Part shown: one piece after another, positions 1 to 11,045 of the stretch
Layout: each line of letters begins with the position of its first letter
Numbering within the stretch: position 1 is the stretch's first letter
DNA from: Ignavibacteriae bacterium HGW-Ignavibacteriae-4
GTDB lineage: Bacteria > Bacteroidota > Ignavibacteria > Kapaibacteriales > UBA2268
Assembly (NCBI GenBank): GCA_002839765.1
Contig: PGYR01000001.1
Span: 1-64,000, forward strand
Reading direction: 5' to 3'
DNA length: 64,000 nt
The notes under the pieces: generated by a model
Told to the model about the DNA's origin: nothing
The model's database searches: none
The model's input: only the letters and a program-made list of their open reading frames with translations
Position numbers and translations under genes: made by a program

Positions 1-1880
1 ATTATAACAGTATATTTACCTTTACAAAGTTCTTTGGCTAGGAATTCACCCTCTTTGTCAGTTGCCTTTTTCTCAAAAATTACTTTACCATTAAGTTTTA
101 AAGTAATCTTAGCTCCTTCAAGCGCAGACTTTGTTTTACTATCTTTTACTATGAATTTTAATATGGCATCACAACAGTCAGATTTTACTTTTAGTTTTTT
201 CTCAAAAGTTAATTCTTTATCACAACCTATTTCAAATTTAAACTCTTGCCCTTCATACTCTTCTGATAATATAGAGATACTATACTCATTACTTTCACAA
301 AGTTCTTTGAATTCAATATATCCATTAGCATCAGTCTTAAGTTCAGTAAGTTGTTTTGAACCTTTCCAAAGTCTTACTGTTACTCCTTTTAAAACATTTC
401 CGTTTTCATCTTTTACAGTTATTTTAACTTTACCATTACAGCAATCGCTAATAGGCTCCATTGAGAATGTTTCTTGGAAAGTATCACAATTCTCAATTTT
501 CCATGATGTCTCTATTCTCTTATACCCATCTTTCTCGATAATAACAGTATAGTTGCCTATACAAAGCTCTTTTGCTAAAAACTCACCTTCGCTATCTGTT
601 AGCTTTTTCTCTAAAATTACTTTACCGTTTAATTTTAAAGTAATCTTAGCATCTTCTAGTGAAGATTTAGTTTTGTTATCTTTCACAATGAATTTTAATA
701 TGGCGTCACAACAATCTTCTTTAGTTGTTAGCTTTTTCTCAAAACTCAACTCTTTATTGCAAGCCAAATCAAATCCAAATTCAAACTCTTCAAAACCATC
801 TGCAAATATAGAAATACTATATTCATTACTTTCACAAAGTTCTTTGAACTCAATATATCCATTTGCATCTGTTTTAAGTTCAGTTAGCTTATTTTTACCC
901 TTCCAAAGTCTGACAGCCGCATTTTTAAGTACATTTCCTTTATCATCTTTAACTATGATTTTTACTTTACCGTCACAACAATCGCTCTTTTTTTCTAGGG
1001 TGTGTTCTAATGTTTTTTCTTCATCACATCCAATTTCAACTTGAACTTCTTTATTTTCGTAACCATCCAGTTTGTACACAATTGTATATTTTCCTTCACA
1101 TAAACTATCTTGAACGGCTGAACCATTTTCGACTAAAGGGTCTTCGATTACTTTTCCATCTTTATATATGTAAACTTTAGTTCCATTTAGTATATTGCCA
1201 TCTTTATCCTTAGGCTTGAATATAAATACTCCATCGCAACAAGTATCCTCATCGGATTGAGTACTTATCATTTTAAAATCAATTAGTTTCGTATCATCAC
1301 AGTTTTCAATATTAATAGTTTCTTCAATTACTTTGTATCCATCTAGTGCCAATCTTAAATTATACTCTTCAAGACAAAGTCCTTCGAATTTAACTTTCCC
1401 ATTCTCGTCAGACGTTCCTTTTTTCAAGAGTTCCTTATTTTGTCTAACTTTTACCTCTACATTCTTAAGTACATTTCCATCTTTATCTTTTATAGTAAGT
1501 TCGATTGAGCCACAACAATCTTTTTTATCCTCTAATGTAACAGAACCATTCTTTTTATTATCTATATCAGAATAGTTTAGGTTCAGTGAGTTATAAAGAG
1601 GATGTGAAATTGAAAATGTTATGTTTTCAGTTGGGACTGAAATTTTATCGAAAGAAATAAAACCATCTTCATCAGATGTGTCAGTTGCTATTACGTCACT
1701 TTTATCAGTCTCATGGATATTAACAATTGCGTTAATAACAGGGTTATCTCTACTATCAATTAAATTAGTAGAATAACTTATGTCCATATCAGAAGGTTTA
1801 CTTGGTTGATCTTCCTTACAGGACATAAATAAAAGTACCGTTACTAATGATATGGTTAAAATACGTATCATTGATTTCAT
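1..1880 (-). CDS. Lipoprotein with tandem four-cysteine Ig-like (Cna-B/carboxypeptidase-regulatory-like) repeats, partial
   Basis: The reading frame opens at the ATG at 1878-1880 and stays open to the left edge, so the C-terminus is missing. The N-terminus is a lipoprotein signal (MKSMIRIL..LLFMSC, lipid Cys at residue 21), predicting an exported, membrane-anchored protein. After a first carboxypeptidase-regulatory-like module, at least six repeats of about 90 residues follow. Each opens with a D-x-C-C or D-C-C motif, contains a V-K-D-x-x-G-N-V-L-like strand, then a third Cys in a (E/S)LC motif and a fourth near the end (x-C-D/N). The CC codons fall near 1520, 1240, 978, 710, 440 and 170, so the period is about 270 nt; from about 1044 leftwards two alternating repeat types give a 540-nt super-period. 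The fold is inferred to be surface beta-sandwiches braced by disulfides. A T9SS or other anchor at the missing end cannot be judged. Function unknown: adhesin or stalk is a guess. Confidence 0.85.
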   Translation of the reverse strand, partial: MKSMIRILTISLVTVLLFMSCKEDQPSKPSDMDISYSTNLIDSRDNPVINAIVNIHETDKSDVIATDTSDEDGFISFDKISVPTENITFSISHPLYNSLNLNYSDIDNKKNGSVTLEDKKDCCGSIELTIKDKDGNVLKNVEVKVRQNKELLKKGTSDENGKVKFEGLCLEEYNLRLALDGYKVIEETINIENCDDTKLIDFKMISTQSDEDTCCDGVFIFKPKDKDGNILNGTKVYIYKDGKVIEDPLVENGSAVQDSLCEGKYTIVYKLDGYENKEVQVEIGCDEEKTLEHTLEKKSDCCDGKVKIIVKDDKGNVLKNAAVRLWKGKNKLTELKTDANGYIEFKELCESNEYSISIFADGFEEFEFGFDLACNKELSFEKKLTTKEDCCDAILKFIVKDNKTKSSLEDAKITLKLNGKVILEKKLTDSEGEFLAKELCIGNYTVIIEKDGYKRIETSWKIENCDTFQETFSMEPISDCCNGKVKITVKDENGNVLKGVTVRLWKGSKQLTELKTDANGYIEFKELCESNEYSISILSEEYEGQEFKFEIGCDKELTFEKKLKVKSDCCDAILKFIVKDSKTKSALEGAKITLKLNGKVIFEKKATDKEGEFLAKELCKGKYTVI

Positions 1881-1957
1881 AACAACCCTCAAATTAATTT
1901 ATTAAATATGCTTACAAATATACTGAATAACAGTTGAAATCGATTTTTGTCACATTT

Positions 1958-3805
1958 TTAGTTAAAAGAAATTATATTAGTATCAAGATTAGGTAATATC
2001 GTTTCTATCTCTAATGAATCTGATTTAGGGATTTTTATAACATTTCTTTCCGGATAAAAGAATTCTAATAATAGTTCTTTAGCAATAGGAGCACATACAC
2101 GACCACCCCAACCTGCATTTTCAACCATCACTGCCATAGCAATTTTGGGATTCTCTTTTGGAGCAAAGCATGTAAACCAACCATGATCTTTACCATGTGG
2201 GTTTTGTGCTGTTGATGTTTTTCCGCAGACATTGAGTCCATCGATACGTGCATTACCTGCAGTACCACCTCCAGCATTAACTACTTGCCACATTCCTTCT
2301 TTCACAATTTCAATTGTTTTAGGGGAGAGTTTCAAGTCTTTCTTATCATATTCTATATTTTGAAAAGTTCTTGTAACATTATTATATATTTTTTTAACGA
2401 CGTGAGGTTGAACCCATATTCCACCATTAGCAATAGCAGCAATGTATGAAGCCATTTGAACCGGAGTAACTAGTATTTCCCCTTGACCAATACCAAAGTT
2501 CATTAACATCCAGCCAGGTATGTTATTATTGAATCTCTTGTTCAATGTAGCTAAATCTTGAAAATTTCCTCTTTTTTCACTAGGTAGGTCTATACCAGTC
2601 AATTGTCCAAAGTTTAATAATCTTCCATATTTCACAACATTCTCAGCTCCCAATTTTAATGATAATTGGTAAAAGAAAGCATTACAGGATTTTTTGATTG
2701 CCGTTTTCACATCTATACTGCCATGATGGCCTAAACATTTGAAGAATCTATTACCATATTGATATCCACCATTGCACGTAAAATGTGAGGTTTCCGTTAT
2801 TACACCTTCTTCTAAACCAGCTAGTGCAATTAGCATTTTCCAAGAAGAACCAGGTGGATATTCACTATTAACTGTTCTATCCAAAAATGGTTTATCTGGG
2901 TCTGTCATTAAAGAATTATAATAACTAGACGATATTTTCCCACTAAATTCTGTTAAATCGTAGGTTGGAGAACTAGCCATAGCAAGGATTTCACCTGTCG
3001 ATGGATCGATTGCGACTATTGCCCCACGCTTACCTTCTAGTAATTTCTCAGCTTTTGCTTGTAATCCTGAATTAATGCCTAAATATAAATCAAAACCATT
3101 CTTCGATACTTTATCTTTTTTACCCTTTTCGTATTGAAATACTTGTTGCCCGAACTTATTAACAGCAACAAATTTAACTCCTTCGTTTCCTTTCAATAAA
3201 CCTTCATATTCTTTTTCAATTCCTTGTTTTCCTATTGCATCACCAGGTCTGTAATATTGAAAAGTTTCTAATTCTTTAGGAGAAATTTCTTTAGTATAAC
3301 CAAGTAGGTGTGCCATATAGGCATCAGATTGATATAAGCGCTTAGATTCAATTATTACATCAATACCTCGTAGATATTCAGAATATTCCTCAATACCAGA
3401 AATAGTTTCTAGATCGACATCTCTTTGGAATTTAATAGGAAGAAAAGGGGAGAAGGAACTATATTTCTTTATTGATTTACTAAGTTCAGTGCTGTCTATG
3501 TCAATCAATGAAACTAATAATGGAAATGATTCATCTCTCCATAAATTTGGAGTGAAGCTCAGTGCAAATGAAGATTTGTTGTGGACTATTAGTTTGCCAT
3601 CAGAATCGTAGATATTACCTCTGAAAGGTTCTTGAATTATCTGCTTAATAGCTTGTGCCTCACTTGCTTCTTTGTAAAGTAACCCCTTTACTATCTGTAA
3701 ATGAGCTAATTTAAGTGTATATAATGCACATACTAATATAACAATTACCTTGAATACACGGATTCTAGGTGTTGATATAAATTTTTCTGAATAATTATTA
3801 TCCAT
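1958..3805 (-). CDS. mrdA: Penicillin-binding protein 2 (peptidoglycan transpeptidase)
   Basis: Class B penicillin-binding protein of the MrdA/PBP2 family, which cross-links peptidoglycan during cell elongation with RodA and MreB. One N-terminal membrane anchor lies at about residues 17-36, followed by the non-catalytic dimerisation region (FRGNIYDSDG near 61) and the transpeptidase domain from about 260. All three catalytic motifs are present: SxxK with the acyl-serine at S320 (S-S-W-K), SxN at S373-C374-N375, and the KTG-type motif K529-T530-S531. The 615-residue length is normal. The start is ATG at 3805, 8 bases after the stop of the upstream O-antigen ligase gene. It is the last gene of the apparent eight-gene envelope operon. 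No rodA is seen next to it in this window. Confidence 0.93.
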   Translation of the reverse strand: MDNNYSEKFISTPRIRVFKVIVILVCALYTLKLAHLQIVKGLLYKEASEAQAIKQIIQEPFRGNIYDSDGKLIVHNKSSFALSFTPNLWRDESFPLLVSLIDIDSTELSKSIKKYSSFSPFLPIKFQRDVDLETISGIEEYSEYLRGIDVIIESKRLYQSDAYMAHLLGYTKEISPKELETFQYYRPGDAIGKQGIEKEYEGLLKGNEGVKFVAVNKFGQQVFQYEKGKKDKVSKNGFDLYLGINSGLQAKAEKLLEGKRGAIVAIDPSTGEILAMASSPTYDLTEFSGKISSSYYNSLMTDPDKPFLDRTVNSEYPPGSSWKMLIALAGLEEGVITETSHFTCNGGYQYGNRFFKCLGHHGSIDVKTAIKKSCNAFFYQLSLKLGAENVVKYGRLLNFGQLTGIDLPSEKRGNFQDLATLNKRFNNNIPGWMLMNFGIGQGEILVTPVQMASYIAAIANGGIWVQPHVVKKIYNNVTRTFQNIEYDKKDLKLSPKTIEIVKEGMWQVVNAGGGTAGNARIDGLNVCGKTSTAQNPHGKDHGWFTCFAPKENPKIAMAVMVENAGWGGRVCAPIAKELLLEFFYPERNVIKIPKSDSLEIETILPNLDTNIISFN

Positions 3806-6438: not shown

Positions 6439-8193
6439 TTAGTTATTATTTACATAAGGAGGTCGTTTGAAATCCTCTTCCATTAAATGCAATTCCGCAT
6501 CTTCGAAAAGTAAATCTGGCAATGTTATGCTTGAAGGTAAATAACTATCCCCACCCGTCAAATAAGGTGAAATAACAGCTGGAGCTAAGTAATTCAAAGT
6601 ATAAGATTTGTCACTTGTACTTACTATGTCTTTGAATAATAATACATTCATAGTTGGAATTACCATACCGCTGAATTTTTCTTTTCTACCGTCAGTATAT
6701 ATTTTATAACCGTCCATCACATAATTCTTTTTACCGAATGGAATCTCTATATTTCCGTTTAAAATTCTATAAAGTGAAGTATATCTTATATTTGCATCTA
6801 AGATTTTAGTGACAACTATTCCAAAGTCTAATTCACGTTTTTTTACAAATTCTAATAACTTTGATTCAAGTTCTTTACTACTAAGTTTATTATCAGAATT
6901 ATTATTTTCAACGATAATATTACTAAACATAACAGAACCACCTCTTTTATGAGCATTTGATTCTTTTATTCTCTTAGTAGGGACTCTATCAGACAATAAG
7001 GTCTCTAAATATCCGCCCTTTACTAATTCCACATTCTGAGATTCTAATCCATCATCATCGATTTTATAAGTACCTATAAGATCGACTCCGTTTAATTTGC
7101 TTTCATTAGGTTTGTCTGTAATATTTAAAAATTCTGGTAATACTCTGCCACCTACTTTTCTTTGGAATACAGCATCTTCATTTTCGGAAGAGAATCCACC
7201 ATCTGTTAATGGCTCTCTTTGTGATATTAATTTTGGCACGAATGATTGAGCAAAAATTTGACCAGCTGCTTGTCCAGAAAATATGATTGGGCCAACATAA
7301 AAGTCATCAAGCTGAGGTAGTATTAATCGATCTGAGATATTGTCAGCTACTTGTTTTGCTGCTTTTATCAGAGAATCTTTCGAAGGCATATCACTTGGTT
7401 TGATTGAATAAGCAGTATAGTGATCAAAGACTGGCATTCCCTCTTTATTTTGACTAGCAGCGACTATTTCAAAACCTGTATAATAAGAGTCTTTAACATA
7501 CTCAACACCTTCAGAGTTTATATAATATATTCTTTGGGGTATAAACTCTATACTAACTCCAGAAGTGTAAATAGCGGGATAACTATTGAATACAGAAGAA
7601 ACCGACTCGATAATGTCCTTATACTTTGCAAGATTGAACTCTGGTATTTCTTTTATATCCCGTAGTTTTTTCACTGACTCCAATTTATTGAAATCTGGAA
7701 TAGTATCTTTACGCATTCTATTTTTTAATATAGCTAGTTTCTTCGAGTATAACTCAGCAGTTTGTTTATAAGCTGCATCAGTAGCTAACCAGAATTCCTT
7801 TCTCAAGTAATTAATACTTGGTTCATAGCTGACAGAGCGTTTTTTAAATCCTTCTTCGTCATCACTACTACCGAAGAATCCTAATCCAACATCAAAGAAA
7901 TTCGTATTATCAAAGCTATAATCTCCTACTCTAACACTTACACTTATATATGCTGATTTCGAGTTATTAGCAGCTTCTATACTTCCCATAGTACCTCTCA
8001 TACTAGATGCTTCATATTCTACATATTTGTACTCTATAAAATATGGACTTTCTAAGTCATTAATCTTTAATTCATTCATCGAACGGCTAAGTTCGTTTTT
8101 CATAGCAAAGATTATATCTTCGTTTGGCTTATCAAAGCTATAGCCAACTGAGTTTATTAAAACTAATAACAATAATGTGATGATCAATTTCAT
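6439..8193 (-). CDS. Exported TldE/PmbA-like protein, catalytically inactive paralogue
   Basis: 584 residues beginning with a clear signal peptide (residues 1 to about 19). The body aligns by eye with the neighbouring TldD-like protein: both carry S-V-R-V-G-D-Y or D-L-R-V-G-D-Y, F-D-N-T, an S-G-x-A-x-G core and D-L-I-G-T with Y-T-D-G-R near the C-terminus. Where the neighbour has the zinc motif HEIFGH, this protein has A-Q-S-F-V-P, and the C-terminal Cys ligand is also missing. By analogy with the TldD/TldE heterodimer, TldE is the non-catalytic subunit. Classical TldD/E are cytoplasmic; the signal peptides on both members here predict an extracytoplasmic version. It is separated from its active partner by one small membrane-protein gene. 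Confidence 0.8.
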   Translation of the reverse strand: MKLIITLLLLVLINSVGYSFDKPNEDIIFAMKNELSRSMNELKINDLESPYFIEYKYVEYEASSMRGTMGSIEAANNSKSAYISVSVRVGDYSFDNTNFFDVGLGFFGSSDDEEGFKKRSVSYEPSINYLRKEFWLATDAAYKQTAELYSKKLAILKNRMRKDTIPDFNKLESVKKLRDIKEIPEFNLAKYKDIIESVSSVFNSYPAIYTSGVSIEFIPQRIYYINSEGVEYVKDSYYTGFEIVAASQNKEGMPVFDHYTAYSIKPSDMPSKDSLIKAAKQVADNISDRLILPQLDDFYVGPIIFSGQAAGQIFAQSFVPKLISQREPLTDGGFSSENEDAVFQRKVGGRVLPEFLNITDKPNESKLNGVDLIGTYKIDDDGLESQNVELVKGGYLETLLSDRVPTKRIKESNAHKRGGSVMFSNIIVENNNSDNKLSSKELESKLLEFVKKRELDFGIVVTKILDANIRYTSLYRILNGNIEIPFGKKNYVMDGYKIYTDGRKEKFSGMVIPTMNVLLFKDIVSTSDKSYTLNYLAPAVISPYLTGGDSYLPSSITLPDLLFEDAELHLMEEDFKRPPYVNNN

Positions 8194-8226
8194 TTATATT
8201 CTTTTTTTAATTTACGTTAATTCAAG

Positions 8227-8760
8227 TTAAATCATATTCTTTTTTAAACTTTCAACAACAACAGCTAATTCTTCAGATTTTTGTGTTCCCAATAGGAGTT
8301 CGAATCCGTCCTTCATTTTTATTCTAAGACCCTTGTTCTTACTAACATTGAGACATAATCCACGACCTTTCATCGAAAATCTATATCCCCATCCACCATA
8401 TTCCATTATAGGTCTATATTTTTCTACTTCAATGCTATAAATAGATTGAACAGGAATAGTCTTATAATCTCTGATGAAAGGCCAAAACTTATATTTAATA
8501 TTTGTGTCTTCTATCTTAGTTTCTAATTTTATTGAGTAGAAAAACCAAGAAAGGAAGATTGCAAATCCAATTACTAGAATAAAACCTACAAATAAAGCTC
8601 CATCACTCATTGGTTTATCACCAAATTGTTCATTTGTAATTACTTGATTGAATAAAGCAATCCCAAATAGTACAATGGATCCACCAGTAATTAGTGTGAG
8701 CAATATCCAAAGTGCCTTTTGTCTGAATACTTGCGTTTCTTCAAATAGTAATTTTGACAT
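8227..8760 (-). CDS. Membrane protein with PH-like C-terminal domain
   Basis: 177 residues with two transmembrane segments (about 17-38 and 53-75) followed by a cytoplasmic beta-rich domain. The pattern K-I-E-D-T-N-I-K-Y-K-F-W-P-F followed by I-P-V-Q-S-I-Y-S-I-E-V and W-G-Y-R-F resembles bacterial PH-like or DUF6141-type proteins. I do not recognise a specific function. Its position is notable: 4 bases after the active tldD-like gene and 33 bases before the inactive tldE-like gene, in one apparent transcript, so a role in anchoring or regulating that protease pair is possible but only inferred from context. Confidence 0.7.
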   Translation of the reverse strand: MSKLLFEETQVFRQKALWILLTLITGGSIVLFGIALFNQVITNEQFGDKPMSDGALFVGFILVIGFAIFLSWFFYSIKLETKIEDTNIKYKFWPFIRDYKTIPVQSIYSIEVEKYRPIMEYGGWGYRFSMKGRGLCLNVSKNKGLRIKMKDGFELLLGTQKSEELAVVVESLKKNMI

Positions 8761-8764
8761 AATA

Positions 8765-10435
8765 CTAATCTGTTGTTACTTTTTTAGGAGCTTCCAATAT
8801 TGGCGGTTTTGCTTGAGACTTTTTCTTCTTTTGTACTTCAATTTTAGAAACTAATATATCTGGTGAAGATGCAGAAACTGGGACTCCACCTGACTCTGCA
8901 CCACATATTCCGTTGAATACACCAACTCTTTCAGAAGTAGCTAATATATTGCTAAAAGTAGATAGGGGAGTTCCAATCAAATCTACTCCTCTTACTAACT
9001 CATTTGCCCTTCCATCTGTATAAATCTTATATACCTCTAGAGGAAGTACATTAAATGCATTTGGTACCGTTCTACCAGTGAATGTAAATCCACCTTGTAC
9101 AGTTTTAAAATACAGACCAAACTCTTTTTCTTGCTTTTTACATTCTTTTCTTAGTAGCTCTACTAATTCATCATCGTCAACCTTATTACTACTCTCTACT
9201 ATTAGATTTGACTGTCTCGATACGGCATTGTAACCAGCTTGTTTTCGACCATGTCCATTAGAATGATCAAATCCTTCAATTGGTGATCTAGCCATCAAAA
9301 AGCTCCTAAATATACCATCATTTACAGAGACTACTTTTTCAGACTTTACGCCCTGATCATCAAATAAAAAGTAACCAGAAAGCTCAGTACCATTTCTTTC
9401 TTTTATAGTAGGATCGAAAACAACATCTATGAAATCAGGAAGTATAGACTCTCCGACAGACTTTTTAAAAGTTTGGCTAGATGATGGATCTTTTTCTCTA
9501 TGTCCTTCAACTCTATGACCGAATATCTCATGGAAAAAGACACCGGAGGCCTCACCGGATAATATTGCAGGGCCGGAGTAAGTGTCCATAAGAGGGGCTT
9601 CTCTTAGTTCTTTTAACAATGCTATTATTTTTAAAATATCAGCTTCTATTTTTCCTAAGGGAGGTAAGGTTTCAGGTGTGAAAGCAAAGTATGACTCGTA
9701 TAAAGGCAAACTCATTCCGTCAGTTGCTTTTGTTTTAGCATATACAAATATTCTAATTGAAGACTCATCAAATTTAAGCTGACTTCCCTCGGTATTTACA
9801 AAATACTTTGTCTTATTCTCTAATTGAAAAGAAACCGAACCATCATATATTAATGGATCTGAATTAAATAGATTAGATAGTTGTTTTACATATCCAACCC
9901 ATTTATCTCTATCTATTTTTAATTTTTCAACTGACTCACTAAATTTGACTGGTTTCTCTTTTGAAAAATCAGCAGATTTATCTTCTTGTTCTACTTTAAC
10001 TGCAGCATTAGATTTTGCTTTCTCATAAGTTTCAATTGCCTCTTTATAGACTTTGTCAGTAGAATACCAAATTTTATTCTTTATTGCATTAGCATTGTTA
10101 TCTAGTGGAAGAAATTCAAATCCAGAACCTCCACCAAAGTTAAATGAACTACCTCTAATAATATGTGTATTATCAAATTTATAATCTCCAACTCTTAGAT
10201 CAATATCTAATATTCTCTGACTTGTACTATCATTACTCATCAGATTACCAAATGATGAATTTATAGAAATTCTCTCTATATCTGTAATATTATATGATAT
10301 ATAATAGGGCGGAGTACTCTCCTTCTGGAGTTCTTTGAAGTTTCGTGTTAGTTCCTTATTTGCAATATCTAAAACTGATTCAGATTTACTAATAGAGAAC
10401 GAAATAAATATTAATGCAATTACTAGTTTATACAT
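8765..10435 (-). CDS. Exported TldD-like zinc metalloprotease
   Basis: The start is taken as the ATG at 10435, which overlaps the gpmA stop as ATGTATAA; an in-frame TTG at 10444 lies further upstream. Residues 1 to about 16 form a signal peptide. TldD proteins are metalloproteases with an HExxxH motif and a distal Cys ligand: here H302-E303-I-F-G-H307 is present, followed by R-V-E-G-H, and the Cys appears in N-G-I-C-G-A-E-S-G-G near the C-terminus. The flanking S-G-E-A-S-G-V-F-F core also fits. The partner TldE-like subunit is encoded two genes downstream. Known TldD/E act on unfolded or modified peptides in the cytoplasm (microcin B17 maturation); the exported location here is inferred and the substrate is unknown. 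Confidence 0.86.
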   Translation of the reverse strand: MYKLVIALIFISFSISKSESVLDIANKELTRNFKELQKESTPPYYISYNITDIERISINSSFGNLMSNDSTSQRILDIDLRVGDYKFDNTHIIRGSSFNFGGGSGFEFLPLDNNANAIKNKIWYSTDKVYKEAIETYEKAKSNAAVKVEQEDKSADFSKEKPVKFSESVEKLKIDRDKWVGYVKQLSNLFNSDPLIYDGSVSFQLENKTKYFVNTEGSQLKFDESSIRIFVYAKTKATDGMSLPLYESYFAFTPETLPPLGKIEADILKIIALLKELREAPLMDTYSGPAILSGEASGVFFHEIFGHRVEGHREKDPSSSQTFKKSVGESILPDFIDVVFDPTIKERNGTELSGYFLFDDQGVKSEKVVSVNDGIFRSFLMARSPIEGFDHSNGHGRKQAGYNAVSRQSNLIVESSNKVDDDELVELLRKECKKQEKEFGLYFKTVQGGFTFTGRTVPNAFNVLPLEVYKIYTDGRANELVRGVDLIGTPLSTFSNILATSERVGVFNGICGAESGGVPVSASSPDILVSKIEVQKKKKSQAKPPILEAPKKVTTD

Positions 10436-11045
10436 TTTCACCAAGATATTTCTTTGATATTAATTTTAATGATTCATCGAACTCATATACATACGGTTTT
10501 CCTGTCGGAATGTTAATATCTGATATGTCTTCTTTACTAACACCTTCTATATGCATAGTCAATGCTCTTAATGAATTGCCATGAGCAGAGATTAAAATAT
10601 CCTTACCTGCCTTAAGCAAAGGAGCTATTTGACTCTCATAATATGGTAGCACACGGTCGAGTGTATCTTTCAGTGACTCTCCTTTGGGTGGAGCCACATC
10701 GAAACTCCTTCTCCAAATATGCAATTGTTCTGCACCGACTTTCTCACCTATTTCAGCTTTATTAAGTCCTTGCAACTCACCATAGTTTCTTTCATTTAAT
10801 GCAATATTAGATATAATTTCAATTTTACTAAATCCGGCTACTTCAGATATAATTTCTGCAGTTTTTATTGCCCTTTTCAACCCAGAAGTGAAGATTTTAT
10901 CAAATTTATATCCTTTGAGTAATTCTCCAGCTTCTTGCGCCTCCTCTATACCAAGCTCAGATAGCTCGATATCGACCCAACCTGTGAATCTATTTTCTTT
11001 ATTCCATTGTGATTGACCATGTCTTACACAAACTAACTTTGACAT
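10428..11045 (-). CDS. gpmA: 2,3-bisphosphoglycerate-dependent phosphoglycerate mutase
   Basis: Interconverts 3- and 2-phosphoglycerate in glycolysis and gluconeogenesis through a phosphohistidine. The phosphatase-superfamily RHG motif is at R8-H9-G10 (CVRHGQSQWN), followed by N-R-F-T-G-W, and the second half has E-R-N-Y-G-E-L-Q-G-L-N and S-A-H-G-N-S-L-R containing the second active-site His. 205 residues is shorter than E. coli GpmA (about 250) but fits the short dPGM form found in many bacteria. The 3' end overlaps the ATG of the tldD-like gene by 8 bases, suggesting translational coupling. Confidence 0.92.
   Translation of the reverse strand: MSKLVCVRHGQSQWNKENRFTGWVDIELSELGIEEAQEAGELLKGYKFDKIFTSGLKRAIKTAEIISEVAGFSKIEIISNIALNERNYGELQGLNKAEIGEKVGAEQLHIWRRSFDVAPPKGESLKDTLDRVLPYYESQIAPLLKAGKDILISAHGNSLRALTMHIEGVSKEDISDINIPTGKPYVYEFDESLKLISKKYLGENV

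What the first reader, a model, noticed from the sequence alone, without database searches (positions are those of the whole stretch)
1..1880. Four-cysteine Ig-like repeats with a 270/540-nt periodicity
At least six repeats of about 90 residues each open with a C-C pair and carry two further Cys at fixed places. Two repeat types alternate, giving near-duplicate DNA at 540-nt spacing (compare 301-350 with 841-890). Cys-rich repeats in an exported lipoprotein from an AT-rich FCB genome suggest a disulfide-braced stalk or adhesin, and recent tandem duplication. I do not recognise a described family with this Cys pattern.
Basis: partly seen in the sequence, partly recalled or inferred. Interest (0 to 1): 0.6.

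Follow-up and report, generated by a model that had tools for sequence, protein, structure and literature searches.

The report
Disulfide-clamped repeat rod on surface lipoprotein
The start of this window carries most of a gene for a lipid-anchored protein, probably on the cell surface, built like a string of small beta-sandwich beads, each with four strictly placed cysteines that most likely form two disulfide clamps; related genes occur widely in this bacterium's own class but no such family has been named.

Summary
Window 1880-3 (minus strand) encodes a lipoprotein with a Cys-free N-terminal domain and six tandem repeats of about 90 residues; repeat 6 is cut by the contig edge. All 23 Cys other than the lipobox Cys sit at four fixed places per repeat (CC, C, C). 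The 3' end is on another contig; a congener has the gene whole, with seven repeats. The repeats are prealbumin/CarboxypepD_reg (PF13620)-type beta-sandwiches, not a new fold, but I found no named family with this Cys pattern. I read 76 relatives with at least three repeats, all from the same GTDB class; of 419 scorable repeats 389 keep all four Cys. In the exceptions Cys mostly go in pairs, C1 with C4 or C2 with C3; CC-- and --CC never occur. That argues for two disulfides per repeat and against a metal site. The AlphaFold model (pLDDT 95.6) puts CC before strand A, C3 in the D-E turn and C4 in the F-G turn, by topology one pole. Best reading: a disulfide-clamped surface stalk, working like isopeptide-locked CnaB pilin domains but not a member of that group. 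Adhesion is untested. The family lacks VKOR and DsbA is rare, so how the disulfides form is open.

The parts
3..1880 (-). four-Cys repeat lipoprotein gene, 3' end missing (contig edge)
   Evidence: frame 1892..3; ATG at 1880; contig C62 begins at window base 1; congener gene is whole, 750-aa frame with 7 repeats
1818..1880 (-). signal peptide and lipobox (MKSMIRILTISLVTVLLFMSC); Cys codon 1820-1818
   Evidence: sequence; helix at model residues 2-19; a comparable lipobox was found by pattern in 58 frames including this one
1809..1820 (-). C-K-E-D after the lipobox: same form as the lipoprotein export signal K-(D/E)2 of Bacteroidetes
   Evidence: motif as quoted in PMC6222051
1536..1781 (-). 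N-terminal beta domain without Cys
   Evidence: strands at model residues 33-114
1242..1517 (-). four-Cys repeat 1 (type 1)
981..1241 (-). four-Cys repeat 2 (type 2)
714..980 (-). four-Cys repeat 3 (type 3)
   Evidence: modelled with repeat 4, pLDDT 95.6
444..713 (-). four-Cys repeat 4 (type 4, same type as the C-terminal repeat)
177..443 (-). four-Cys repeat 5 (type 3)
3..176 (-). four-Cys repeat 6 (type 4), cut off by the contig edge; most likely continues on contig C34 with a seventh repeat and the stop codon
   Evidence: 35-nt overlap of C62 start and C34 end; C34 frame
1958..3805 (-). penicillin-binding protein 2-type gene directly upstream, same strand; neighbour conserved in four genera, not part of the protein
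   Evidence: PF00905, PF03717

Best explanation
The gene makes an outer-membrane lipoprotein whose mature part is a chain of about eight beta-sandwich domains of prealbumin/CarboxypepD_reg type: one without Cys next to the membrane and, in the complete gene, about seven with four Cys. Within each repeat C1 pairs with C4 and C2 with C3. C1 and C2 lie just before strand A, C3 in the D-E turn and C4 in the F-G turn just before the last strand G, so both bonds tie the point where the chain enters the domain to two hairpins at one pole. Pulling along the rod would then load little beyond the last strand, much as the Lys-Asn isopeptide bond between first and last strands locks CnaB pilin domains. 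Length is tuned by gain and loss of repeats (3 to 10 found). Shown: architecture, fold (prediction), conservation, paired loss of Cys. Inferred: oxidation state, exact pairing, surface exposure (K-(D/E)2 signal), stalk function, force bypass.
For: All 23 non-lipobox Cys in the window protein are in register. Among 453 repeats aligned from the class, 419 are scorable at all four places: CCCC 389, C--C 15, -CC- 9, -C-C 5, CCC- 1; CC--, --CC and C-C- do not occur. The single CCC- repeat carries an extra Cys two residues before C1, so its total is again four. 410 of 436 repeats have an even Cys count. The Cys columns are 92-97% conserved, among the highest of all columns. Cys state changes at least 19 times on the best repeat tree; C3 loss goes with C2 loss in 3 of 3 independent supported pairs and with C1 loss in 0 of 3. 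Two-repeat AlphaFold model pLDDT 95.6 with seven strands per repeat and the Cys outside the strands; full-length model shows a string of such domains, pLDDT 84.7. Fold neighbours are CnaB pilins and transthyretin-like domains, e.g. 8bdw Z 13.2, rmsd 1.9 over 89; 5aq0 Z 13.3, rmsd 1.4 over 81. First-to-last-strand locking in CnaB domains and an extra disulfide in SpaD D3: PMC4014117. The window genome has an exported DsbA-like protein with a CSSC motif.
Against: No coordinates were available, so S-S distances were not measured. The five -C-C repeats fit the pairing only if the one-residue gap beside the vicinal Cys is placed the other way. Few independent losses rest on well-supported branches (2-3 pairs per test; the sign test cannot reach significance, and C4 with C1 is 1 of 2). 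VKOR and Thioredoxin_4 are absent from all 54 family genomes, DsbB from this genome, and DSBA is found in only 7 of 54. pTM 0.66 for two repeats and 0.39 for the whole means that the relative placing of domains is not determined, so a straight rod is inferred. Gene neighbours differ between genera and give no functional hint.
Confidence: 0.6

Rival explanations
1. The four Cys of each repeat bind a metal ion or an iron-sulfur cluster, so that the protein is a chain of metal sites (storage, redox or electron transfer).
For: Four strictly conserved Cys that topology puts at one pole of each domain; no standard disulfide oxidase family is widespread in the genomes.
Against: Twenty-nine repeats keep exactly two of the four Cys, always one of the vicinal pair plus one of C3/C4; a four-ligand site would be lost, not halved in matched pairs.
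Confidence: 0.07
2. The Cys form bonds between neighbouring repeats or between molecules, making a covalent filament or layer, rather than clamps inside each domain.
For: The CC pair lies at the domain junction, close to the previous repeat; some S-layer proteins have related domains (8qox).
Against: Both members of a pair are missing from the same repeat while other repeats of the protein keep all four: internal repeat 5 in L051, internal repeats in L166 and L170. The Cys count per repeat is even in 410 of 436.
Confidence: 0.13
3. An ordinary secreted repeat lipoprotein in which the Cys are structural but the protein's job is ligand binding or envelope support rather than a stalk: for example a partner of the peptidoglycan synthase PBP2 beside it, perhaps facing the periplasm.
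For: PBP2 lies upstream on the same strand in 12 loci of four genera.
Against: In the other genera and families PBP2 was not found adjacent; the CKED start fits the surface export signal; repeat number varies from 3 to 10, as expected for a spacer.
Confidence: 0.2

Closest known systems
CarboxypepD_reg (PF13620), carboxypeptidase regulatory-like domain
   Same: Sequence family of the repeats: whole-protein E = 2e-45, seven matched stretches; seven-strand prealbumin-like sandwich.
   Different: The fixed CC-C-C pattern is not a general feature of the fold family: seven stretches matched by the repeat profile in L172 have no Cys. I did not read the Pfam profile itself.
CnaB / SpaA prealbumin-like stalk domains of Gram-positive pilins and adhesins
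   Same: Fold and tandem stalk layout; a covalent bond is placed between the start of the domain and its last-strand region (here inferred).
   Different: Disulfides instead of Lys-Asn isopeptide bonds: no conserved Lys in the middle of strand A nor Asn/Asp in strand G; lipid anchor instead of sortase.
Disulfide-carrying Cna-type domains (SpaD D3 of Corynebacterium diphtheriae; CLIPPER/DUF11)
   Same: Beta-sandwich stalk domains that use a disulfide for extra stability (PMC4014117, PMC12617251).
   Different: In the solved examples one disulfide comes on top of an isopeptide bond and at other places (SpaD D3: between strands 19 and 22; CLIPPER: CTTC in the final strand).

Membership tests
CarboxypepD_reg (PF13620) | profile match above Pfam's gathering score | tested here: met
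   153.5 bits against a cut-off of 32.3, seven stretches
CarboxypepD_reg (PF13620) | seven-strand prealbumin/transthyretin-like sandwich | tested here: met
   model pLDDT 95.6, seven strands; 5aq0 Z 13.3, rmsd 1.4 over 81 residues
CnaB isopeptide domain | CnaB-type fold | tested here: met
   8bdw Z 13.2, rmsd 1.9 over 89 residues; SpaA PF17802 above cut-off
CnaB isopeptide domain | Lys in the first strand, Asn/Asp in the last strand, acidic catalyst | tested here: not met
   no conserved Lys in the middle of strand A and no conserved Asn/Asp in strand G over about 450 repeats
CnaB isopeptide domain | sortase signal at the C-terminus | tested here: not met
   the protein ends directly after the last repeat (...EHFWMKK) and has a lipobox
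Bacteroidetes surface lipoprotein (LES) | lipobox followed by K-(D/E)2 or similar | tested here: met
   C-K-E-D in the window; +3 acidic in 36 of 58 frames with a lipobox
Bacteroidetes surface lipoprotein (LES) | surface exposure of the protein | not testable with these tools
   needs protease shaving or antibody on cells
T9SS cargo | C-terminal sorting domain | tested here: not met
   the last domain is a four-Cys repeat followed by the stop codon; no sorting domain among the Pfam rows shown for the part in the window
Fibrillar adhesin | distinct adhesive domain at the tip | tested here: inconclusive
   only repeats found; the terminal repeat has its own signature (Ala at column 7 in 47 of 77 last repeats against 17 of 288 middle ones) but no known binding domain was recognised

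The most novel reading that the evidence does not exclude
A class-wide kind of bacterial surface rod in which each prealbumin-like bead is locked by two disulfides between the domain entry and the D-E and F-G turns, doing with disulfides what Gram-positive pilins do with isopeptide bonds, in bacteria that mostly lack VKOR and DsbA and therefore need an unrecognised oxidant or oxidase for it.
Probability: 0.3. Interest if true: 0.55.

Novelty: new variant of a known kind. Interest (0 to 1): 0.4.

Why it matters
It points out a conserved, apparently unnamed protein family (a match in 38 of 54 genomes of the GTDB family, and in other families of the class) and gives a testable disulfide map from natural pairwise losses. 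If right, it is a second chemical solution to locking beta-sandwich stalk domains, and it raises a concrete question: how bacteria with few recognisable disulfide oxidases oxidise a protein with about 28 structural Cys.

Tried and rejected
Tandem Repeats Finder gave nothing, as its longest period is 500 and the copies have diverged. The genome-contig scan found only two close congeners. NCBIfam gave only sub-threshold hits. Papers on Cys-rich regulatory-like repeats in this group: none found. Gene neighbourhood as a clue to function: PBP2 adjacency holds in four genera only; elsewhere kinase/regulator, NuoEF, BNR and other genes, so dropped. Phylum hit G255/L172 has matching domains but no Cys in them. 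Reading all repeats as very recent duplicates: only types 3 and 4 are amplified in this species; a congener amplified types 2 and 4 instead. tRNA and Rfam scans show nothing at the locus. Distances between Cys sulfurs could not be taken from the models, because no coordinates are handed out.

Full report
What is there. The first 1,880 bases of the window hold, on the minus strand, a lipoprotein gene that starts at an ATG at 1880 and runs off the window at base 1, because the window starts at the first base of contig C62. The protein has a signal peptide ending in the lipobox FMSC, a Cys-free domain of about 85 residues, and six tandem repeats that open with CC at aa 126, 218, 305, 394, 484 and 573. 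Apart from the lipobox Cys, all 23 Cys are in the repeat positions. The direct-repeat finder sees a 300-nt block repeated at 537 nt with 78% identity; the quoted 540 nt is three bases off in this stretch.

Where the rest is. Contig C34 of the same genome ends in the same repeat, and the last 35 bases of C34 equal the first 35 of C62. Its frame continues the repeat, adds a further one and stops. In congener G042 (record title: Ignavibacteriota bacterium) one unbroken frame of 750 residues has seven repeats, with the PBP2 gene upstream and recX and recA downstream; in the window genome PBP2 is on C62 and recX/recA on C34. The simplest reading is a seven-repeat gene in which the assembly broke; more repeats in the gap cannot be excluded.

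What family. Pfam places the repeats in CarboxypepD_reg (PF13620, E = 2e-45) and the related SpaA prealbumin-like domain. No NCBIfam model fits above its cut-off. The AlphaFold model of repeats 3 and 4, built with 94 repeat pairs, has pLDDT 95.6 and seven strands per repeat; its best structural neighbours include transthyretin-like and CnaB domains. The whole protein is modelled as a signal helix, a linker and a chain of such domains (pLDDT 84.7). The low pTM values mean that the angles between domains are not determined.

How widespread. In the GTDB family of the window genome 38 of 54 genomes have a match; in the order 51 of 123, in a sample of the class 63 of 391. In an even sample of 395 genomes of the phylum only members of the same class had the four-Cys form; the one match from elsewhere has no Cys in its repeats. 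I read 76 genes with three or more repeats; they carry 3 to 10. Phyla other than the window's own were not searched.

What the Cys do. Of 419 repeats scorable at all four places, 389 keep all four Cys, 15 keep C1 and C4, nine keep C2 and C3, five keep one vicinal Cys and C4, and one keeps C1-C3 and has an extra Cys two residues before C1. Two-Cys repeats therefore always keep one of the vicinal pair and one of C3/C4. This excludes a C1-C2 bond and a C3-C4 bond as the general rule, argues strongly against a four-Cys metal site, and favours C1-C4 and C2-C3 by 24 to 5; the five dissenters lack one residue next to the vicinal pair, so which of the two Cys they kept cannot be told. Exceptions occur in first repeats, last repeats and internal repeats, and on the best tree need at least 19 changes of state, of which at least 5 are forced by well-supported branches; the supported independent pairs are too few for a significance test. 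In the model CC precedes strand A, C3 is in the D-E turn and C4 in the F-G turn. Because successive strands run in opposite directions, these three places lie at the same pole.

How it probably works. In CnaB pilin domains a Lys-Asn bond joins first and last strands and is assumed to give mechanical stability (PMC4014117). Here C1-C4 would join the entry of the domain to the start of the last strand, and C2-C3 would tie the entry to the D-E turn. Pulled at both ends, most of the domain would be bypassed. The isopeptide residues themselves are not conserved, so it works like, but is not, a CnaB isopeptide domain. The K-E-D after the lipid Cys is of the form K-(D/E)2 reported as export signal in Capnocytophaga, with CS(D/E)2 in Bacteroides (PMC6222051); relatives are often acidic at +3 and +4. 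A surface stalk follows from this as inference; no adhesive domain was found.

Evolution. In the genus there are four repeat types. The window species alternates types 3 and 4; congener G041 alternates 2 and 4. Type 4 is the type of the C-terminal repeat, which has its own signature across families. So the four-Cys repeat is old, and the alternating expansion is recent and differs by species.

Open problem. VKOR and Thioredoxin_4 are absent from all 54 genomes of the family, DsbB from this genome, and DSBA occurs in 7 of 54, while the control genomes gave matches. The window genome has one DsbA-like protein with a signal peptide and a CSSC motif, but most genomes with the repeats have no such hit. 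Either a diverged thiol oxidase does the work, or oxidation is not enzymatic, or the Cys are not all oxidised.

Verdict. Real, well-conserved and apparently unnamed, but of a known fold and a familiar kind (a tandem beta-sandwich stalk); the new part is the four-Cys clamp and its pairing.

Noticed in passing
window 6439-10444 (-): A gene of the PmbA/TldD kind (584 aa) and a second one that looks like its relative (559 aa), with a 177-aa gene between them, in the same direction as the PBP2, O-antigen ligase and Wzz genes.
   Followed up: partly
window 1 / G000 contig C62 start and C34 end: The assembly breaks inside this gene's repeats with a 35-nt overlap; PBP2 on one side and recX/recA on the other lie together in three congeners.
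   Followed up: yes
L058, L060, L065, L078: Some genomes hold a second paralogue with four to seven repeats; in two of them it is followed within 10 bases by a very large gene, in L065 with BNR repeats and a Por_Secre_tail.
   Followed up: partly
L177 1742-2758 (+): DsbA-like protein with signal peptide and CSSC motif in the window genome, a possible oxidant for the repeats; absent by profile from most relatives.
   Followed up: partly
L153, L155, L165 (class family f59): The four-Cys repeat gene lies between regulator genes (response regulator, histidine kinase) and genes of the NuoE/NuoF kind.
   Followed up: no
L142-L147 (order family f2): The first repeat has six or seven Cys instead of four; possible third disulfide.
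   Followed up: no
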